A stretch of 64,000 nt of DNA, from contig NZ_FNUD01000002.1 of NCBI RefSeq assembly GCF_900106095.1, positions 2,811,501 through 2,875,500 of the forward strand. The letters are read 5' to 3'. Position numbers and translations under genes: made by a program. The notes below the pieces were generated by a model. It was not told where the DNA came from and did not search any database. It saw only the letters and a program-made list of their open reading frames with translations. Source of the stretch: Pseudomonas deceptionensis (GTDB taxonomy: Bacteria; Pseudomonadota; Gammaproteobacteria; Pseudomonadales; Pseudomonadaceae). Of the stretch, positions 5,354 to 47,604 are shown one piece after another. Positions within the stretch are counted from its first letter, which is position 1; each line of letters begins with the position of its first letter.

Positions 5354-7435
5354 TTATCGGTCCCGTTCATGGGCTTGCTGGCGGGCACAGGCCAGCAATT
5401 CGAGGCGTTGCGTGGCATCAATGGTGTCCAGCAACGTGTTGCAATCACCAGGCAGCCGTCGGCACCAGTTGGGGTGACCGCTGATGGTGCCCGGCAAATT
5501 GGCTTGTTCCTCAAGACCCAGCGCGTCCTCTATCGGCAGCAATACCAGTGGCGCACGGGTGTGCCCCAGAAAACGAATGCTGGCGTCCAGTGTCGGCGCG
5601 TTGCCTTGGGCTTCTTCCTGAAAGTTTTGCGGGTCCTGGCTCAAGGCGCGGTGCAGGCCTTCGCACTCGATGCTGCGATTTTCGCGCCAGCGCTGCGCGG
5701 CCACCGGATCGACCAGACCCAGGCGTTCGTTCCAGTCGATGTCGCGTCCGTGCAGCCAGCCATTGAGGGTTGGCAGGTCGTGGGTGCTGGTGGTGGCCAG
5801 TGCGTCATCCGGCCAGTCCAGAATCGGCTTGAAACGGGCGCCATAGTCCTGTTCGAACAGCAGCACGCGAATGCCGAGGATCGCCCGCTCGCTGAGTTTT
5901 TCCCGCAGCCCGTCGGGTACAGTGCCGAGGTCTTCACCCAGGACGATGGCCTGGTTGCGCACGGACTCGAGGGCGACCAGGCGCAGCAGGTCATCGATCG
6001 GGTAATACAGATAGGCCCCTTCGCTGGGCGATGCCCCCAAGGGGATCAGCCACAAGCGTTGCAAGCCCAGTACATGGTCAATGCGCAGCCCGCCTGCGTG
6101 GGCGAAGTTGGCGCGCAACATTTCGATAAACGCTCGGAAACCATTGCGCTTGAGGCCTTCGGGCGAGAACGCGGAAATGCCCCAGCCCTGGCCTGCGCGG
6201 TTGAGCTGGTCGGGCGGGGCGCCCACGGTCAGTTTTGCCAGCAGTTCATCCTGCCGGCACCAGGCCTGGCTGCCCGCACCATCGGCCCCCACGGCCAGGT
6301 CGGCGATCAGGCCAACGGCCATGCCGCTGGCCCGGGCGGTGGCTTGTGCGCGAGCCAGGCAGCGGTCCATCAACCACTGACAAAAGGCGTAAAAAGCGAT
6401 CACATGCCGGTGTTTTTCGGCGAAGTGCAGCAGCGCCGGGCTGTCAGGATTGCGCCACTGCTCGGGCCAGTCGCGCCAGTCGAGGCTGTGGTTATCGGCC
6501 ACACAGGTTTCCTGCACGGCTTCGAAGCGACAATGGTTTTCCAGCGCCTCGCCACCCTGTTCGCGAAACTGCCGGAAGTCGGCCAGCAGCGGGTGATCGT
6601 CCTGGACAAAGTGCTCGTAGAGCTGGCGCAGCAGGGTCTGCTTGGCCCGGGTTGCGGCGGGCCAGTCGATCAGGGGGAGCTGTTCCAGCCGCTCCAGTTC
6701 ATCCTTCAGCCCGGTGGCCTCAATGGCTTTGCTGAGTGCTTCTTTCCCCAGAATGCTGGCCGGAGCGGCATACAGGCTGTTGAGAAACAGGCGGCTGGAC
6801 GGTGAGTACGGGCTGTAGTGTTTTGGCGCGCTGCTAAACATGGCGTGCACGGGGCTGATCGCCAGTGCATCGGCGCCTCGCTCGCCAGCGGCCTGCAACA
6901 GGGTTTCCAGGGCCCGGGTATCGCCGAAGCCGCCGTCGCCATGCCGGCGCAACGAGTACAGTTGAGCGCTCAGGCCCCAGGCCCGGGGGGCCGACTGGTG
7001 CAAGGCATCGCCGATACTGAAGCACTTGGCCGGGGCCACGGCCAGGGTGAAATGCTGGTCGTCCAGCTGCACCCGGTGGTAGCCGACGGGGATCATGCCC
7101 GGCAGCATCGCGTCGGCATCCAGCTGGATCGCCAGCGACTGACCGTTTTCAAGGTGCACCACGCAGTGACTGTGGGGGTGGAAATAGCGTGATAAATCCA
7201 GGGCCTTGCCAGCGTCGGCGGTCAGTAATGGCGGCAGACGCTTGTTCTGTTGCTCCAGTTGCAGGTTAAGCAAGCTGGTTTCAATGGCTTCGGCGCTGTT
7301 GGCTGGCAGGCCCAGCCCCGCCAATATGGCTTCCAGTACTTGGGGCTGGACTCTTTGTGGCTGGCCGTTGGCATCAATCCAGTCAACAGCCAGCCCGGCT
7401 CGACCGGCAAGTATTTCAAGTTGCGCTTCGCTCAT
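5354..7435 (-). CDS. malQ: 4-alpha-glucanotransferase (amylomaltase) MalQ
   Basis: MalQ moves maltosyl and longer glucan units between malto-oligosaccharides, working with GlgX on glycogen-derived dextrins. The 693-residue GH77 protein has the expected catalytic residues Asp453 (GLRIDHV), Glu501 (VLGEDLGTVP) and Asp553 (STHDLPT). An N-terminal extension of about 140 residues precedes the barrel, as in other bacterial type II amylomaltases. It begins 59 bases after glgA ends. In P. aeruginosa treZ lies between glgA and malQ and treY follows malQ; neither is present here. Confidence 0.94.
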   Translation of the reverse strand: MSEAQLEILAGRAGLAVDWIDANGQPQRVQPQVLEAILAGLGLPANSAEAIETSLLNLQLEQQNKRLPPLLTADAGKALDLSRYFHPHSHCVVHLENGQSLAIQLDADAMLPGMIPVGYHRVQLDDQHFTLAVAPAKCFSIGDALHQSAPRAWGLSAQLYSLRRHGDGGFGDTRALETLLQAAGERGADALAISPVHAMFSSAPKHYSPYSPSSRLFLNSLYAAPASILGKEALSKAIEATGLKDELERLEQLPLIDWPAATRAKQTLLRQLYEHFVQDDHPLLADFRQFREQGGEALENHCRFEAVQETCVADNHSLDWRDWPEQWRNPDSPALLHFAEKHRHVIAFYAFCQWLMDRCLARAQATARASGMAVGLIADLAVGADGAGSQAWCRQDELLAKLTVGAPPDQLNRAGQGWGISAFSPEGLKRNGFRAFIEMLRANFAHAGGLRIDHVLGLQRLWLIPLGASPSEGAYLYYPIDDLLRLVALESVRNQAIVLGEDLGTVPDGLREKLSERAILGIRVLLFEQDYGARFKPILDWPDDALATTSTHDLPTLNGWLHGRDIDWNERLGLVDPVAAQRWRENRSIECEGLHRALSQDPQNFQEEAQGNAPTLDASIRFLGHTRAPLVLLPIEDALGLEEQANLPGTISGHPNWCRRLPGDCNTLLDTIDATQRLELLACARQQAHERDR

Positions 7436-17596: not shown

Positions 17597-17651
17597 CTGT
17601 GGGGGGGAGCTTGCTCGCGAAGGTCGTTCGCGAGCAGGTTCGCTCCCACAG
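17597..17651. repeat. REP element between hldD and tal
   Basis: Inverted arms CTGTGGGGGGGAGCTTGCTC and GAGCAGGTTCGCTCCCACAG with a short GCGAAGGTCGTTCGC tip fill the gap between two convergent genes. The hairpin may also help end both transcripts. Confidence 0.8.
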
Positions 17652-24850: not shown

Positions 24851-24936
24851 TGTGAACTGGCTTGCCAGCGATGCAGGCCCCAGGGTGTAGCTGAGTGACC
24901 GCGGTGATGCGATCGCCAGCAGGCTGGCTCCCACAG
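24851..24936. repeat. REP element pair (GCCAGCAGGCTGGC variant)
   Basis: Inverted REP arms GGCTTGCCAGCGATGCAGG and GATCGCCAGCAGGCTGGCTCCCACAG between tpx and muxA. The same variant appears at 47516-47604. Confidence 0.8.
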
Positions 24937-32400: not shown

Positions 32401-32553
32401 CTGGGCCTGACCATTATCGGCGGGCTGCTCCTGAGCCAAATCCTGACCCTTTACACCACCCCGGTGGTTTACCTCTATCTCGACCGTATGCGCCGTCGCT
32501 TCAACAAATGGCGCGGCGTGCGTACTGATGCTGCTCTGGAAACTCCGCTATGA
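29446..32553 (+). CDS. muxC: RND efflux pump subunit MuxC (MdtC type)
   Basis: A 1035-residue second RND subunit, clearly related to but distinct from MuxB (start [19 protein letters not shown]4 signature [19 protein letters not shown]). In MdtBC-type pumps one subunit is thought to move protons and the other to bind drug. The C-terminal span [21 protein letters not shown] is typical of the family. Long minus-strand open frames opposite this gene are coding shadows. ATGA overlaps at both ends. Confidence 0.95.
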
Positions 32554-34046
32554 CCTCTCGTTTGCTTGATCTTGCCCCGGCCCTGTCGTCCCAACGCTGG
32601 GCGCTTGCCCGCGGCTCGCGCTTGCTGGGCCTGGTGTTATCAGGCCTGTTGCTCAGCGCATGCGCGATTGGCCCGGACTACCAGCGTCCCGAGGCCGCGT
32701 CGCCCGCCCAATTTAAAGAAGCCGCAGGCTGGACCCAGGCCAACCCGAGCGATGCGCTGGAGCGTGGCGCGTGGTGGGAGCTGTATGGCGACCCGCAGCT
32801 CAACGGGCTGGTGGAGCGACTCAACAGTGCCAACCAGAGCGTGGCTCAGTCCGAGGCGCAGTTTCGCCAGGCGCAAGCCCTGGTGCGCAGTGCGCGCGGG
32901 GCGTTCCTGCCCAGTGCCGACCTGACGGTGGGTAAAACCCGCTCCAGCCAGGGCACCGGCAGCTCCAGCTCCAGTTTGAGCAGCTCCAGCAGCGGGATCC
33001 GCAACACCTTGAACGCGCAAGTCGGCGTGAGCTGGGAAGCCGATGTGTGGGGCAAGTTGCGTCGCGGTCTGGAAGCCAACGAAGCCAGTGCCGAGGCCAG
33101 CCTGGCCGATCTGGCGGCGATGCGTTTGAGCCAACAGTCGGAGCTGGTGCAGAACTACCTGCAACTGCGGGTGATAGACGAGCAAAAGCGTTTGCTGCAA
33201 GCCACGGTCGAGGCCTATCAGCGTTCGTTGAAGATGAGTGAAAACCAGTACCGGGCGGGGATTTCCGGCAAGGATGCGGTGGCCCAGGCGCAGACCCAGT
33301 TGCGTACTACCCAGGCCAGCCTGATCGACCTGATCTGGCAGCGTGCGCAGTTTGAAAACGCGATTGCGGTACTTACCGGGCAAGCACCGGCCGGGTTTGC
33401 TCTGGCTGAAACCAAAAACGTACCCGAGTTGCCGCAGATCCCTGCCAGCTTGCCGTCACAATTGCTGGAGCGCCGCCCGGACATCGCGTCTGCGGAGCGC
33501 TCGATCATCGCCGCCAACGCCAATATCGGCGTGGCCAAAGCCGCTTACTATCCGGACTTCAGCCTGAGCCTGCAGGGCGGCTACAGCAGTAGCAAGTATG
33601 AAGACTGGATCAGCGTGCCTAACCGCTTCTGGTCGGTGGGGCCGAAAATTGCCTTGCCGTTGTTCGACGGTGGCCAGCGTTCGGCGGAAGTGGACCGCAA
33701 CGAGGCCGTCTATGACCAGACCGTGGCCAAGTACCGCCAGACCGTGCTCGACGGTTTGCGCGAAGTGGAAAACTACATGGTTCAGCTCAAGGTGCTGGGC
33801 GATGAGTCGGTGGTGCAAGAGCAGGCGCTGGAGTCCGCCCGGGAGTCGCTGCGTTTGACCAATAACCAGTACAAGGCGGGTTTGATTGCCTATCTGGATG
33901 TGGTGTCGGTGCAAACCACGGCCTTGAGCACCGAGCGCAGCGTGCTCAACCTGCTGCAAAGCCGTCTGATCGCCAGCGTGCAACTGATCGCGGCGCTGGG
34001 CGGTGGTTGGGATGGCAACACCGACCTGAGTGCCCGGGAACAATAA
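32550..34046 (+). CDS. opmB: Outer-membrane efflux channel OpmB (OprM/NodT family)
   Basis: A 498-residue TolC-like outer-membrane factor. The N-terminus has a lipoprotein signal with the lipobox LLLSAC followed by AIGPDYQRP, the classic start of mature OprM-family proteins. Two OEP repeats follow (about 65-260 and 290-480). A Ser-rich stretch (SSQGTGSSSSSLSSSSSG, residues about 132-149) lies in the first periplasmic hairpin. It is the last gene of the pump operon, followed at once by the 167-base repeat array. Confidence 0.94.
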   Translation: MTSRLLDLAPALSSQRWALARGSRLLGLVLSGLLLSACAIGPDYQRPEAASPAQFKEAAGWTQANPSDALERGAWWELYGDPQLNGLVERLNSANQSVAQSEAQFRQAQALVRSARGAFLPSADLTVGKTRSSQGTGSSSSSLSSSSSGIRNTLNAQVGVSWEADVWGKLRRGLEANEASAEASLADLAAMRLSQQSELVQNYLQLRVIDEQKRLLQATVEAYQRSLKMSENQYRAGISGKDAVAQAQTQLRTTQASLIDLIWQRAQFENAIAVLTGQAPAGFALAETKNVPELPQIPASLPSQLLERRPDIASAERSIIAANANIGVAKAAYYPDFSLSLQGGYSSSKYEDWISVPNRFWSVGPKIALPLFDGGQRSAEVDRNEAVYDQTVAKYRQTVLDGLREVENYMVQLKVLGDESVVQEQALESARESLRLTNNQYKAGLIAYLDVVSVQTTALSTERSVLNLLQSRLIASVQLIAALGGGWDGNTDLSAREQ

Positions 34047-34060
34047 ATCCTGCCCCGCGG

Positions 34061-35182
34061 GTGCTCACCCACCCTGATGGTTGCAGCACCTTTGTGGGAG
34101 CGAGCCCGCTCGCGATGGCATCACTGCGATTGTTCGGATGCACCGCGGCGCCAGAATCGCGAGCAGGCTCGCTCCCACGGTGAATTGAGGAAAGATCCAG
34201 ATTCTATGAGCTGCTTGGGGGCCTGCTGTGCTCACCCACCCTGATGATTTCAGCGCCTTTGTGGGAGCGAGCCCGCTCGCGATGGCATCACCGCGATTGT
34301 TCGGATGCACCGCGGTGCCAGAATCGCGAGCAGGCTCGCTCCCACGGTGAATCGAGGAAAGAGCCAGATTCTATGAGCTGCTTGGGGGCCTGCTGTGCTC
34401 ACCCACTCTGATGATTTCAGCGCCTTTGTGGGAGCGAGCCCGCTCGCGATGGCATCACCGCGATTGCTCGGATGCACCGCGGTGCCAGAATCGCGAGCAG
34501 GCTCGCTCCCACGGTGAATTGAGGAAAGATCCAGATTCTATGAGCTGCTTGGGGGCCTGCTGTGCTCACCCACCCTGATGATTTCAGCGCCTTTGTGGGA
34601 GCGAGCCCGCTCGCGATGGCATCACTGCGATTGTTCGGATCCACCGCGGTGCCAGAATCGCGAGCAGGCTCGCTCCCACGGTGAATTGAGGAAAGAGCCA
34701 GATTCTATGAGCTGCTTGGGGGCCTGCTGTGCTTACCCATCCTGATGGTTGCAGCGTCCTTGTGGGAGCGAGCCCGCTCGCGATGGCATCACCGCGATTG
34801 TTCGGATGCACAGCTGAGCCAGAATCGCGAGCAGGCTCGCTCCCACGGTGAATTGAGGAAAGAGCCAGATTCTATGAGTTTCTTGGTGGCCTGCTGTGCT
34901 CACCCATCCTTATGGTTGCAGCGTCCTTGTGGGAGCGAGCCCGCTCGCGATGGCATCACCGCGATTGTTCGGATCCACTGCGGCGCCTGAATCGCGAGCA
35001 GGCTCGCTCCCACGGTGAATTGAGGAAAGATCCAGATTCTATGAGCTGCTTGGGGGCCTGCTGTGCTCACCCACCCTGATGATTTCAGCGCCTTTGTGGG
35101 AGCGAGCCCGCTCGCGATGGCATCACCGCGATTGTTCGGATGCACCGCGGTGCCAGAATCGCGAGCAGGCTCGCTCCCACAG
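34061..35182. repeat. Tandem array: seven copies of a 167-base REP-pair unit
   Basis: Units start at 34061, 34228, 34395, 34562, 34729, 34896 and 35063, exactly 167 bases apart; the seventh is cut at about 35182. Each begins GTGCTCACCCACCCTGATG (small variations), then holds an inverted REP pair (TGTGGGAGCGAGCCCGCTCG ... CGAGCAGGCTCGCTCCCAC) and a unique spacer GAGGAAAGAKCCAGATTCTA. Copies differ at a few sites: the GATTTCAGCGCC variant in units 2, 3, 4 and 7, the GGTTGCAGCRYC variant in 1, 5 and 6. The array fills the gap between the convergent opmB and diguanylate cyclase genes, ending 5 bases before the latter's stop. Open frames of about 75 codons inside are repeat artefacts. Confidence 0.95.
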
Positions 35183-35186
35183 GTCT

Positions 35187-36263
35187 CTACTGATAAAAAC
35201 TGAACCGGTCCTTGCCACTGTTCTTGGACCGGTACAGCGCCTTGTCGGCCTTGGCCAGGGCCTGGTTGAGGGTGTCATCCTCTTCCACACGGGTCAGCCC
35301 GATGCTGATGGTCACCGGGTGTTCGTCGGGATCTTCGCGCACCCGGCGGCACAGGGTATCCATCAGGATCTCGACGTCCGAGCGCCGCACCCCCGACATA
35401 TACACCGCAAATTCCTCGCCGCCCAACCGCGCGTATTCGTAGCCAGTCATCACCGCCTCGATGTTTGCGGCAGTGCGCTTGAGCACTTCATCGCCAATAT
35501 CATGGCCAAACTGGTCGTTTACCTTCTTGAAGTTATCGATATCGATCATCGCAAGATAGTGGTCGTGTTCCCGGGGCAGGACCTGTAACTCATGGCCTGC
35601 CTGAAGCATGAAGGAGCGTCGGTTGGGAATCTCGGTCAGGGCATCCAGATAAGCCTGGGCCACCAGCAATTTGGACATTGTGTAGTTGTGCAGTTTGACC
35701 CGGCGTAGTTTGAAAAAGCTGTAGATCGTCAGGCTGCACAAAAAGGCGAAGTAGCACAGGATCAAGAGGCCGCGCAGATCCATGATCGACGCCTGGGTCA
35801 TCAGGAAAGGGTTGAGCATCACACAGTTGATGGCCGCAACGCTGAGAAAGGCCCAGCGGCTAAGGGGTAAAACCGATGCGCTGTAAAGGATGCTGGAACT
35901 GGCAAGTGCCAGCCAGATTGGCTGTGTCTCTGCGGGCAGGCCAAAGATGATCAGACGCAAGCCGAGCGTGATGACCAGGACGAAAATCAGGTTGAGTACG
36001 TCGAAGTGCCGGTAGTTGTGAATAAAGCCAAGAATGACGGTCAGCCCCACCATGACGCTGATAAACAGCAGGGACAGGCCGGTAAAACCCTGGCCGCCCT
36101 TGGTGCTGATAATAAGGTTGAACAGCAACCAGATCGCAATGCTCGTGATGTAGGTCAGGCGGCAAAAATTGCGCAGCTTTTCAAAATCATGTTGGGCAAA
36201 TTCGGCTTGCAAGGCAGGTGGCGCGGCTTGTTTCGAAATCTCTTTTTCAATGGTCTTGAGCAT
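35187..36263 (-). CDS. Membrane-bound diguanylate cyclase (GGDEF)
   Basis: A 358-residue protein that should make cyclic di-GMP from GTP. The N-terminal 190 residues contain about six membrane spans (first at 38-52, last at 165-185). The GGDEF domain (about 200-355) has LDALTEIPNRRSF, the metal-binding MIDIDNFKKVND and the active-site GGEEF at 281-285. No RxxD inhibitory site is seen just before GGEEF (MTGY stands there), so product inhibition may be absent. No recognisable soluble sensor domain is present; the membrane part may be the sensor. GGDEF proteins control biofilm and motility. Confidence 0.9.
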   Translation of the reverse strand: MLKTIEKEISKQAAPPALQAEFAQHDFEKLRNFCRLTYITSIAIWLLFNLIISTKGGQGFTGLSLLFISVMVGLTVILGFIHNYRHFDVLNLIFVLVITLGLRLIIFGLPAETQPIWLALASSSILYSASVLPLSRWAFLSVAAINCVMLNPFLMTQASIMDLRGLLILCYFAFLCSLTIYSFFKLRRVKLHNYTMSKLLVAQAYLDALTEIPNRRSFMLQAGHELQVLPREHDHYLAMIDIDNFKKVNDQFGHDIGDEVLKRTAANIEAVMTGYEYARLGGEEFAVYMSGVRRSDVEILMDTLCRRVREDPDEHPVTISIGLTRVEEDDTLNQALAKADKALYRSKNSGKDRFSFYQ

Positions 36264-39145: not shown

Positions 39146-41083
39146 ATGGGACAGACTCGTTTTGCCACAGGGCGTGATTTGGATTTGATCTGCCTTGGAC
39201 GCCTGGGCGTCGACCTCTACTCGCAGCAAGTAGGGGCACGCCTGGAGGACGTCAGCAGTTTTGCCAAATACCTTGGCGGCTCATCGGCCAATATCGCTTT
39301 CGGTACTGCGCGACTGGGCTTGCGCTCAGCCATGTTGAGCCGGGTGGGCGATGACCACATGGGCCGCTTTCTGACCGAATCCCTGGCCCGCGAAGGCTGT
39401 GACGTCAGCGCCATCACCATCGATACGCAGCGCCTGACCGCGCTGGTGCTGCTGGGCCTCAAGGACCGCGAAACCTTCCCGCTGGTGTTCTACCGCGAAA
39501 ACTGTGCCGACATGGCGCTGCGGGCAGAGGACATCAACCCGGCCTTTATCGCTTCTAGCAAGGCATTGCTGATTACCGGCACCCACTTCTCCACCGAGGG
39601 CGTGTACCAGGCCAGCATTCAGGCGCTGGACTATGCCCGGCAGCACAACGTACGGCGGGTGCTGGATATCGACTATCGCCCTGTCCTGTGGGGGCTGGCG
39701 GGCAAGGCCGATGGCGAGACCCGTTTTGTCGAAGACCACAAGGTCACTGCCCACGTGCAATCGATCCTGCCGCGCTTTGACCTGATCGTTGGCACCGAAG
39801 AAGAGTTTCTGATTGCCGGTGGCGGCACTGACTTGCTGGCTGCATTGCGCGCAGTGCGCGGCCTGACCGCTGCCACGCTGGTGGTCAAGCTGGGGCCGCA
39901 GGGGTGCACCGTGATCCACGGTGAAATCCCGGCCCGGCTGGAAGATGGCGCCATTTACCCGGGTGTGCAGGTTGAAGTGCTCAACGTGCTGGGTGCGGGT
40001 GATGCCTTTATGTCCGGCTTTCTCAGTGGCTGGCTGGAGGACGCGAGCGATGAGCGTTGCTGCCAGTTGGCCAATGCCTGCGGTGGGCTGGTGGTGTCGC
40101 GCCATGCCTGCGCCCCGGCCATGCCGACGCGCGCCGAGCTCGATTACCTGTTCAACAGCCCGGTGCCGATTACCCGGCCTGATCAGGATGTGGCGTTGCA
40201 GCGTTTGCATCAGGTCAGCGTGCCGCGCAAACAGTGGAAGCAGCTGTTTGTGTTCGCATTCGATCACCGCTGGCAGCTGGTTGAAGTTGCCCAGCAGTAC
40301 GGCCGCGATCACGACAGCATCTGCGCCCTCAAACAGCTGTTTATCCAAGCGGTGGAACGGGTCGAAACCGACTTGCGCCGCCAGGGCATCGACGCCGATA
40401 TCGGGTTGCTGGCCGACCAGCGTTTCGGGCAGGACTCACTGAACGCCGCCACCGGTCGCGGCTGGTGGATTGCCCGTCCGGTAGAGGTTCAAGGCTCGCG
40501 GCCACTGGCCTTTGAGCATGGCCGTTCGATCGGCAGCAACCTGATTGCCTGGCCACAAGAACACATCATCAAATGCCTGGTGCAATTCCACCCCGATGAC
40601 GAGCCGCTGCTGCGCCTTGAGCAGGAAGCACAGATCAAGGGGCTGTATGACGCATCACTGATCAGCGGGCATGAACTGCTGCTGGAAATCATCCCGCCCA
40701 AAGACCATCCCTCAACTCATCCGGACGTGCTGTACCGCTCCATCAAGCGTTTGTACAACCTGGGCATTTTCCCGGCCTGGTGGAAAATCGAAGCGCAGAC
40801 CGCGCAGGTGTGGGAGCAACTCGACGCGCTGATCAACGAGCGCGACCCGTATTGTCGGGGCGTGGTGCTGTTGGGTCTGAATGCGCCGGCCTCGGTGCTG
40901 GCCGAAGGCTTCAGGCAGGCACGCCAGAGCACCACCTGTCGAGGTTTTGCCGTGGGCCGCACGATCTTCCAGGAGCCGAGCCGCGCCTGGTTGGCGGGTG
41001 AGATAGACGACCAGACGCTGATCGAACGTGTGCAAGGGACCTTTGTGCAGTTGATCGAATCCTGGCAAGTGGCCCGCAGGTAA
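39146..41083 (+). CDS. iolC: Bifunctional 5-dehydro-2-deoxygluconokinase/DUF2090 aldolase (IolC-IolJ fusion)
   Basis: A 645-residue fusion. The N-terminal half (about 1-330) is a PfkB sugar kinase with LGGSSANIAFGTARLGL and the catalytic NVLGAGDAFMSGFLSG near residue 285; it phosphorylates 5-dehydro-2-deoxygluconate. The C-terminal half (about 335-640, from KQLFVFAFDHRWQL) is a DUF2090 domain, the proteobacterial counterpart of the IolJ aldolase that splits the product into malonate semialdehyde and dihydroxyacetone phosphate. CAGGAG precedes the ATG. It is the first gene of the inositol set; a REP pair separates it from iolE. Confidence 0.93.
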   Translation: MGQTRFATGRDLDLICLGRLGVDLYSQQVGARLEDVSSFAKYLGGSSANIAFGTARLGLRSAMLSRVGDDHMGRFLTESLAREGCDVSAITIDTQRLTALVLLGLKDRETFPLVFYRENCADMALRAEDINPAFIASSKALLITGTHFSTEGVYQASIQALDYARQHNVRRVLDIDYRPVLWGLAGKADGETRFVEDHKVTAHVQSILPRFDLIVGTEEEFLIAGGGTDLLAALRAVRGLTAATLVVKLGPQGCTVIHGEIPARLEDGAIYPGVQVEVLNVLGAGDAFMSGFLSGWLEDASDERCCQLANACGGLVVSRHACAPAMPTRAELDYLFNSPVPITRPDQDVALQRLHQVSVPRKQWKQLFVFAFDHRWQLVEVAQQYGRDHDSICALKQLFIQAVERVETDLRRQGIDADIGLLADQRFGQDSLNAATGRGWWIARPVEVQGSRPLAFEHGRSIGSNLIAWPQEHIIKCLVQFHPDDEPLLRLEQEAQIKGLYDASLISGHELLLEIIPPKDHPSTHPDVLYRSIKRLYNLGIFPAWWKIEAQTAQVWEQLDALINERDPYCRGVVLLGLNAPASVLAEGFRQARQSTTCRGFAVGRTIFQEPSRAWLAGEIDDQTLIERVQGTFVQLIESWQVARR

Positions 41084-41087
41084 GTCC

Positions 41088-41180
41088 CTTGTGTGGGAGC
41101 GAGCCTGCTCGCGATGCAGCCAACGCGGGGTATCTGACACACCGCAGCGCCCCCATCGCGAGCAGGCTCGCTCCCACAAG
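41088..41180. repeat. REP pair inside the iol operon
   Basis: Near-perfect inverted arms TGTGGGAGCGAGCCTGCTCG (with CGATG) and CATCGCGAGCAGGCTCGCTC (with CCACAAG) between iolC and iolE, both genes reading rightward. It can form a strong mRNA hairpin and may change the ratio of iolC to downstream transcript. Confidence 0.85.
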
Positions 41181-47515: not shown

Positions 47516-47604
47516 CTGTGGGCGCTGGCCTGCCAGCGATGCAGGCCCCGAGGTGTTTCAGGCACATCGCAGTGATGTCTTCGCCAGCAGGCTGGCTCCC
47601 ACAG
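47516..47604. repeat. REP element pair after iolG
   Basis: Inverted arms CTGTGGGCGCTGGCCTGCC and TCGCCAGCAGGCTGGCTCCC (with ACAG) between iolG and the next oxidoreductase. Same variant as the copy at 24851-24936. Confidence 0.8.

What the first reader, a model, noticed from the sequence alone, without database searches (positions are those of the whole stretch)
34061..35182. Seven head-to-tail 167-base units each carrying a REP pair
Seen directly: unit starts at 34061, 34228, 34395, 34562, 34729, 34896 and 35063 are exactly 167 bases apart, and the array fills the space between convergent opmB and a GGDEF gene. REP pairs (REPINs) are normally single; here the pair plus unique flank has been amplified as one block. 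Two sequence variants alternate (units 2,3,4,7 against 1,5,6), which points to repeated unequal crossover or gene conversion rather than one recent duplication. Such arrays may bind gyrase or DNA-bending proteins, or end both transcripts.
Basis: seen in the sequence. Interest (0 to 1): 0.72.

Follow-up and report, generated by a model that had tools for sequence, protein, structure and literature searches.

The report
Tandem REPIN cluster between convergent genes
Seven near-identical copies of a small mobile hairpin element with its neighbouring spacer stand head to tail in one gene gap of a Pseudomonas; such clusters are already known in this genus, and the mildly surprising part is that the spacer is not unique to this place but turns up beside the same elements elsewhere in the genome.

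Summary
A 167-bp unit is repeated 6.7 times (94% matches) at 34061-35180 and fills 1,120 of the 1,140 bp between convergent opmB-like and GGDEF genes. Each unit holds one REPIN (two inverted 22-nt REPs, identical in all seven units) plus an 82-bp spacer. The '1,5,6 versus 2,3,4,7' grouping does not hold; units are mosaics. The kind is known: Bertels & Rainey 2011 report 16 tandem REPIN clusters 'including the flanking sequences' in P. fluorescens SBW25, and the related P. paraversuta has longer ones, 14.9 x 120 and 13.2 x 116 bp. The same gap lacks this array in the four sister species that could be checked, so it is not conserved. A RAYT gene elsewhere in the genome is flanked by exact copies of this REP. 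Function is untested; one REP lies 6 nt from the GGDEF stop codon.

The parts
34061..35180 (+). tandem array, 6.7 units of 167 bp (six full units, one of 118 bp)
   Evidence: TRF score 1995, 94% matches, 0% indels; unit comparison
34094..34178 (.). REPIN 1 (inverted REP arms 34094-34115 and 34157-34178)
   Evidence: both arms exact
34261..34345 (.). REPIN 2
   Evidence: arms exact; RNA fold -62.2 kcal/mol on + and -66.8 on -, z -9.3 and -10.2
34428..34512 (.). REPIN 3
   Evidence: arms exact
34595..34679 (.). REPIN 4
   Evidence: arms exact
34762..34846 (.). REPIN 5
   Evidence: arms exact
34929..35013 (.). REPIN 6
   Evidence: arms exact
35096..35180 (.). REPIN 7; on the - strand its first REP begins 6 nt after the GGDEF stop codon
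   Evidence: arms exact; distance; fold of 35095-35196 on the - strand -68.5 kcal/mol, z -9.1
34346..34427 (+). inter-REPIN spacer, 82 bp, one of six; homologous to the spacers of the REPIN cluster at G000:C2 1940.5 kb
   Evidence: 64-71 of 82 aligned bases identical over the six spacers and two partner spacers; alignment A1
34061..34093 (+). 33-bp remnant of the spacer at the opmB-side end of the array
   Evidence: sequence and unit comparison; matched by spacer model positions 50-83
32550..34046 (+). opmB-like efflux outer-membrane gene, 498 aa (flanking gene)
35187..36263 (-). GGDEF (diguanylate cyclase) gene, 358 aa, convergent flanking gene
   Evidence: PF00990, TIGR00254

Best explanation
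This is an ordered tandem REPIN cluster. REPINs of the GTGG-GAGCGAGCC[C/T]GCTCGC type, presumably mobilised by the cell's cognate RAYT (inferred), entered a tolerant gap between two convergent genes in this lineage. They came as a REPIN-plus-spacer unit of a kind also present about 0.9 Mb away. The unit was then multiplied and partly homogenised in place by unequal exchange and gene conversion between long direct repeats (inferred). I infer no conserved function at this site. It may incidentally affect transcript 3' ends; the most concrete candidate is the GGDEF gene, whose stop codon lies 6 nt from a very stable hairpin.
For: Shown: array geometry and exact REP arms; strong hairpins on both strands; a RAYT (NF047646, 144 bits, cut-off 80) with five exact arms of this REP close to it, three on one side and two on the other, while the genome's second RAYT has none (up to 3 mismatches) in its 4-kb locus. 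The array is absent from the orthologous gap in 4 of 4 sister species whose contig spans it: P. bubulae 142 bp with another palindrome-like sequence, P. helleri 440 bp with a different 125-bp REP-type array, P. lundensis 12 bp, P. paraversuta 34 bp. Mosaic units. Spacer shared with the 1940.5-kb cluster. Comparable clusters in SBW25 and P. paraversuta.
Against: Neither RAYT action nor unequal crossover was observed. REP arms carry fewer variable sites than the rest of the unit in all three own-genome arrays tested (0/44, 0/44, 2/44 against 21/123, 14/85, 40/203), so plain neutral duplication is not the whole story; selection or preferential recopying acts on the arms. Two of three P. paraversuta arrays do not show this depletion. 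No second strain of the same species was available to show copy-number change.
Confidence: 0.78

Rival explanations
1. A selected 3'-end device: the array acts as a two-sided transcription or translation punctuation mark for the efflux operon and the diguanylate cyclase, and copy number tunes it.
For: Convergent position with the gap filled; hairpins on both strands; the REP is 6 nt from the GGDEF stop, within the under-16-nt limit at which REPs lower translation in E. coli (passages of PMC12306157 citing its reference 17); REP arms invariant across the seven units. The consensus scan found no intrinsic terminator in the region.
Against: Absent from the same gap in 4 of 4 sister species that could be checked, two of which have gaps of only 12 and 34 bp. 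The opmB stop is 47 nt from the nearest hairpin, outside that limit. No terminator-like T-tailed stem was found.
Confidence: 0.12
2. A gyrase- or IHF-binding BIME-like array that relieves supercoiling between two converging transcription units.
For: E. coli BIMEs are tandem REPIN-like doublets, and IHF, gyrase and Pol I interact with REPs or BIMEs (PMC3686654 passage); the convergent position would build positive supercoils (general knowledge).
Against: No binding data for Pseudomonas REPs were found or tested. Two of the four clusters of three or more units lie between co-directional genes (333 kb and 1940.5 kb).
Confidence: 0.06
3. The array is an assembly artefact of one or two units.
For: Long repeats are a common site of assembly error (general knowledge).
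Against: 21 variable sites tell units apart; the genome is in 2 contigs, 5.1 Mb; independent arrays occur in another assembly of the group.
Confidence: 0.04

Closest known systems
Ordered tandem REPIN clusters of P. fluorescens SBW25 (Bertels & Rainey 2011, PMC3116915)
   Same: [quoted passage not shown] unit = flank, REPIN, shorter flank (passages and Fig. S7 legend). Two large SBW25 GI/GIII REP arrays are near-identical copies at distant loci (section), comparable to the spacer sharing seen here.
   Different: The largest ordered REPIN cluster there has four REPINs plus one REP, over 700 bp; here seven REPINs in 1,120 bp. Here the spacer is shared with another locus at about 78-87% identity.
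BIMEs of E. coli
   Same: Inverted REP pairs with linkers, often in tandem copies (passages of PMC3686654, and PMC8266576).
   Different: GTGG rather than the common GTAG head tetranucleotide (for GTAG); protein binding untested here.
REPIN arrays of P. paraversuta (G423)
   Same: Head-to-tail REPIN plus spacer units of 114-120 bp.
   Different: More copies (up to 14.9); the two arms of the unit are of two different REP types (consensus units); other spacer sequences.

Membership tests
REPIN | two inverted REPs a short distance apart that fold as one hairpin | tested here: met
   7 of 7 units, arms 41 bp apart, exact; folds of REPIN 2 (z -9.3 and -10.2) and REPIN 7 on the - strand (z -9.1); the other five were not folded
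REPIN | many dispersed copies of the same REP in the genome, mostly extragenic | tested here: inconclusive
   118 matches at E<=0.001 on both strands, 40 of 234 candidates scored; copies are dispersed, but the extragenic share was not counted
REPIN | a cognate RAYT in the genome flanked by the same REP | tested here: met
   RAYT at L068 1596-2054 with five exact arms at 1430-2211; the other RAYT has none in L067
REPIN | mobilisation by the RAYT | not testable with these tools
   no experiment
ordered tandem REPIN cluster (SBW25 type) | near-identical REPINs repeated in tandem together with flanking sequence | tested here: met
   period 167, 94% matches, flank included
BIME (E. coli) | binding by DNA gyrase, IHF or Pol I | not testable with these tools
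   no binding data
intrinsic terminator | GC-rich stem followed by a T tract | tested here: not met
   0 sites in 33900-35400 on both strands, shuffles mean 0.7

The most novel reading that the evidence does not exclude
The mobile unit in this genome is not only the REPIN but a REPIN-plus-spacer cassette. Clusters would exchange or send out cassettes to distant loci, cut without regard to REP ends, for example as recombination circles or RAYT-made single strands, so that clusters act as nurseries of second-order elements. Support: of 22 REPIN loci compared, the four clusters of three or more units all share spacer sequence with another locus, while 16 of 22 share nothing with each other (one of the 22 was added because one search had found it). 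One partner locus (1922 kb) holds a copy 164 bp long, longer than one 130-bp unit, at 95% identity, beginning inside a REP arm and ending inside a spacer.
Probability: 0.25. Interest if true: 0.55.

Novelty: new member of a known kind. Interest (0 to 1): 0.3.

Why it matters
It shows that tandem REPIN clusters arise repeatedly among these related Pseudomonas, and that the spacer DNA of a cluster can travel with its REPINs. If confirmed, that gives a handle on how clusters form, a step that the 2011 work left open as a 'second mechanism'. The REP 6 nt from a diguanylate cyclase stop codon is a simple test case for REP effects outside E. coli.

Tried and rejected
Spacer as a gene fragment: weak spacer-model hits at about positions 27-78 (own 2161.3 kb, L199, L213, L214; 13.8-20.3 bits) fall in the same orthologous reading frame, a 2-hydroxyacid (lactate) dehydrogenase-like gene (name recalled from the translation, no family search). 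I set it aside because per-genome E-values of 0.0017-0.21 are near chance over 398 genomes and the own gene matches worse than those of other species. It is not fully excluded. Hits in G224 (18.4 bits, E 0.009), G419, G420 and G421 (E 0.05-0.8) were not followed.

Rfam: 28 sub-threshold hits, all microRNA hairpin models below their gathering scores; a result of long hairpins only.

Coding array: minus-strand ORFs of 75-81 aa recur in the units, but 167 is not a multiple of 3 and the one tested has no Pfam match. Rejected.

Ancestral spacer at the partner locus: no spacer hit (E <= 0.01) in any of five sister loci around the PadR gene; REP pairs were there in 2 of 5 (L209, L210). The P. helleri locus (L211) gave no hit to the PBP gene, so its gap may not be the same.

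Tandem junctions of exactly this REP type (30-90 bp apart) were found only in the own genome, 14, and in 0 of 5 sister genomes; the P. paraversuta arrays use other REP types. The unit's REPIN has relatives in 4 of 5 sister genomes, none in P. lundensis.

Plasmid search of the region: no match. The spacer DNA search of 398 genus genomes found only the own array, but the same kind of search missed the about 80%-identical partner in the own genome, so its silence says little. The profile search is better but scored only 11 candidates per genome.

Full report
What is there. The region 34061-35180 is a head-to-tail array of a 167-bp unit, 6.7 copies, 94% matches, no indels. Each unit contains one REPIN of 85 bp: a REP arm GTGGGAGCGAGCCCGCTCGCGA, a 41-bp middle and an inverted arm with one base changed. 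All 14 arms match the pattern exactly, and the C/T difference between left and right arm is the same in all seven units. REPIN 2 folds at -62.2 and -66.8 kcal/mol on the two strands, z -9.3 and -10.2; the other REPIN folded, REPIN 7 on the - strand with its flank, gives -68.5, z -9.1. Between REPINs lies an 82-bp spacer. On the opmB side only the last 33 bp of a spacer remain; on the GGDEF side there is none.

Surroundings. The left gene is an outer-membrane efflux gene (TIGR01845, PF02321) and the right a GGDEF gene (PF00990), in convergent orientation. The gap is 1,140 bp and the array takes 1,120 of it; the first hairpin is 47 nt from the opmB stop and the last is 6 nt from the GGDEF stop. 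The consensus scan found no terminator-like and no promoter-like site in 33900-35400.

Sister species. The GGDEF protein search gave five near relatives at 74-85% identity: P. bubulae, P. psychrophila, P. helleri, P. lundensis and P. paraversuta. In the four whose contig spans the gap, opmB is next door and convergent. The gaps are 142 bp (P. bubulae, with a CCCTCACCC-type palindrome-like sequence; copies elsewhere not tested), 440 bp (P. helleri, with its own tandem array, 125 bp x 2.7, of another REP-containing unit that also occurs at other P. helleri loci), 12 bp (P. lundensis) and 34 bp (P. paraversuta). The P. psychrophila contig ends 43 bp after the GGDEF stop. So this array is not shared with these species, and the same gap holds a different array in one of them. 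In the 23 further loci with a near full-length relative of the gene (L076-L098) opmB was not found within the fetched DNA at E 1e-30.

How the units relate. 21 of 167 columns vary. Units 2, 3, 4 and 7 are close (0-5 differences) and units 2 and 7 are identical over 118 bp, but 5 and 6 differ by 11 and unit 1 is nearer to 2, 3 and 4 than to 5 or 6. There are 15 pairs of sites with all four gametes among the six full units (8 among all seven units over 118 columns). In a simple, approximate no-recombination simulation for six units the mean was 0.34, and 3 of 3000 runs reached 15. This supports exchange between units. No variable site lies in the 44 arm columns (21 of 123 others, p 0.001). The own-genome arrays at 333 kb and 4057 kb agree (0 of 44 against 14 of 85; 2 of 44 against 40 of 203). 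Of three P. paraversuta arrays one agrees and two do not (1/44 against 9/68, p 0.04; 2/22 against 16/96, p 0.30; 8/44 against 12/70, p 0.66); pooled p is 8e-7. The fourth own-genome cluster (1940.5 kb) and the fourth P. paraversuta array (117 bp) were not put into this test. REP arms in the own-genome arrays tested are therefore constrained or preferentially recopied.

Same elements elsewhere. The unit matches at least 118 places on both strands in the genome (40 of 234 candidates scored). Two RAYT genes were found; the one at 4217.6 kb has five exact copies of this REP arm around it and the other has none in its 4-kb locus, so the first is the likely partner. The clusters with three or more units that I saw are at 333 kb (130 bp x 4.1), 1940.5 kb (134 bp x 2.2; six arms, three REPINs), here, and 4057 kb (247 bp x 5.9). 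Two of the four lie between convergent genes (here and 4057 kb) and two between co-directional genes. P. paraversuta has 120 bp x 14.9, 116 x 13.2, 114 x 6.8 and 117 x 4.0. Tandem junctions of exactly this REP type, 30-90 bp apart, occur 14 times in the own genome and not in the five sister genomes.

The spacer is not unique. The 82-bp spacer recurs, 64-71 of 82 aligned bases identical, between the REPINs of the 1940.5-kb cluster (for one spacer pair the score is 46 against a maximum of 9.5 in 2000 shuffles). It was not convincingly found in five sister genomes (best other hit E 0.034) or in 397 other genus genomes (three with weak hits, E 0.0017-0.009), within the limits of those searches. 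Of 22 REPIN loci of this genome compared with REPINs masked, three pairs share flank: this array with 1940.5 kb (84 bp, 83%), the 333-kb cluster with the single REPIN at 1922 kb (44 bp, 93%), and the 4057-kb cluster with the single REPIN at 4241 kb (88 bp, 80%); 16 of 22 share none. The 4241-kb locus had been added because an earlier search found it, the 1940.5-kb cluster was already known to match, and the 22 are only part of all REPIN places. Unmasked, the 1922-kb copy is 164 bp long at 95%, more than one 130-bp unit, beginning inside a REP arm and ending inside a spacer. So REPIN-plus-spacer pieces appear to have moved between loci without respecting REP ends.

Mechanism. Shown: structure, spread, absence in the sisters checked, mosaic units, shared spacers. 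Inferred: RAYT-driven entry, growth by unequal exchange, tolerance of the convergent gap. A side effect on the GGDEF transcript is plausible, since in E. [quoted passage not shown]); it is untested here.

Known or new. Bertels & Rainey 2011 (PMC3116915; passages and one section seen) report 16 ordered clusters of REPINs including flanking sequences in SBW25, the largest with four REPINs plus one REP, and two near-identical distant REP arrays. This array is a larger member of that kind. I saw passages of PMC3686654, PMC8266576 and PMC12306157. The literature searches listed no title or abstract start that treats spacer sharing between REPIN clusters as such; they cover open-access text only, and apart from the four papers named I saw only listings.

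Noticed in passing
window 41093-41177: Single intact REPIN of the same type, with 9 nt between it and the stop codon of the 645-aa gene ending at 41083.
   Followed up: no
window 17599-17649, 24913-24934, 47581-47602: A degenerate REP pair (3 and 1 mismatches) and two lone REPs of a variant type (GAGCCAGCCTGCTGGC).
   Followed up: no
L076, L077, L078 about 7103-7172: In three other Pseudomonas loci, where opmB was not found nearby, a pair of REPs facing outward lies some 25 nt after the stop of the related GGDEF gene; the gene end may be a recurrent REP site.
   Followed up: partly
L194 1428-2944 (P. paraversuta): The 116-bp x 13.2 REPIN array also reads as 346-bp x 4.4, a three-unit higher-order repeat, suggesting multi-unit duplication steps.
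   Followed up: no
L073 7101-7438 (P. helleri): Different REP-containing 125-bp tandem array in the same opmB-GGDEF gap; its unit recurs at other P. helleri loci.
   Followed up: partly
L069 1339-1776 (own genome 1033.4 kb): Two-unit direct repeat of 219 bp (98%) that contains the REPIN; it shared no flank with the other 21 loci compared.
   Followed up: partly
window 34065-35145, minus strand: Five recurrent 75-81 aa GTG-start ORFs in the array units that automatic annotation could call hypothetical proteins.
   Followed up: partly
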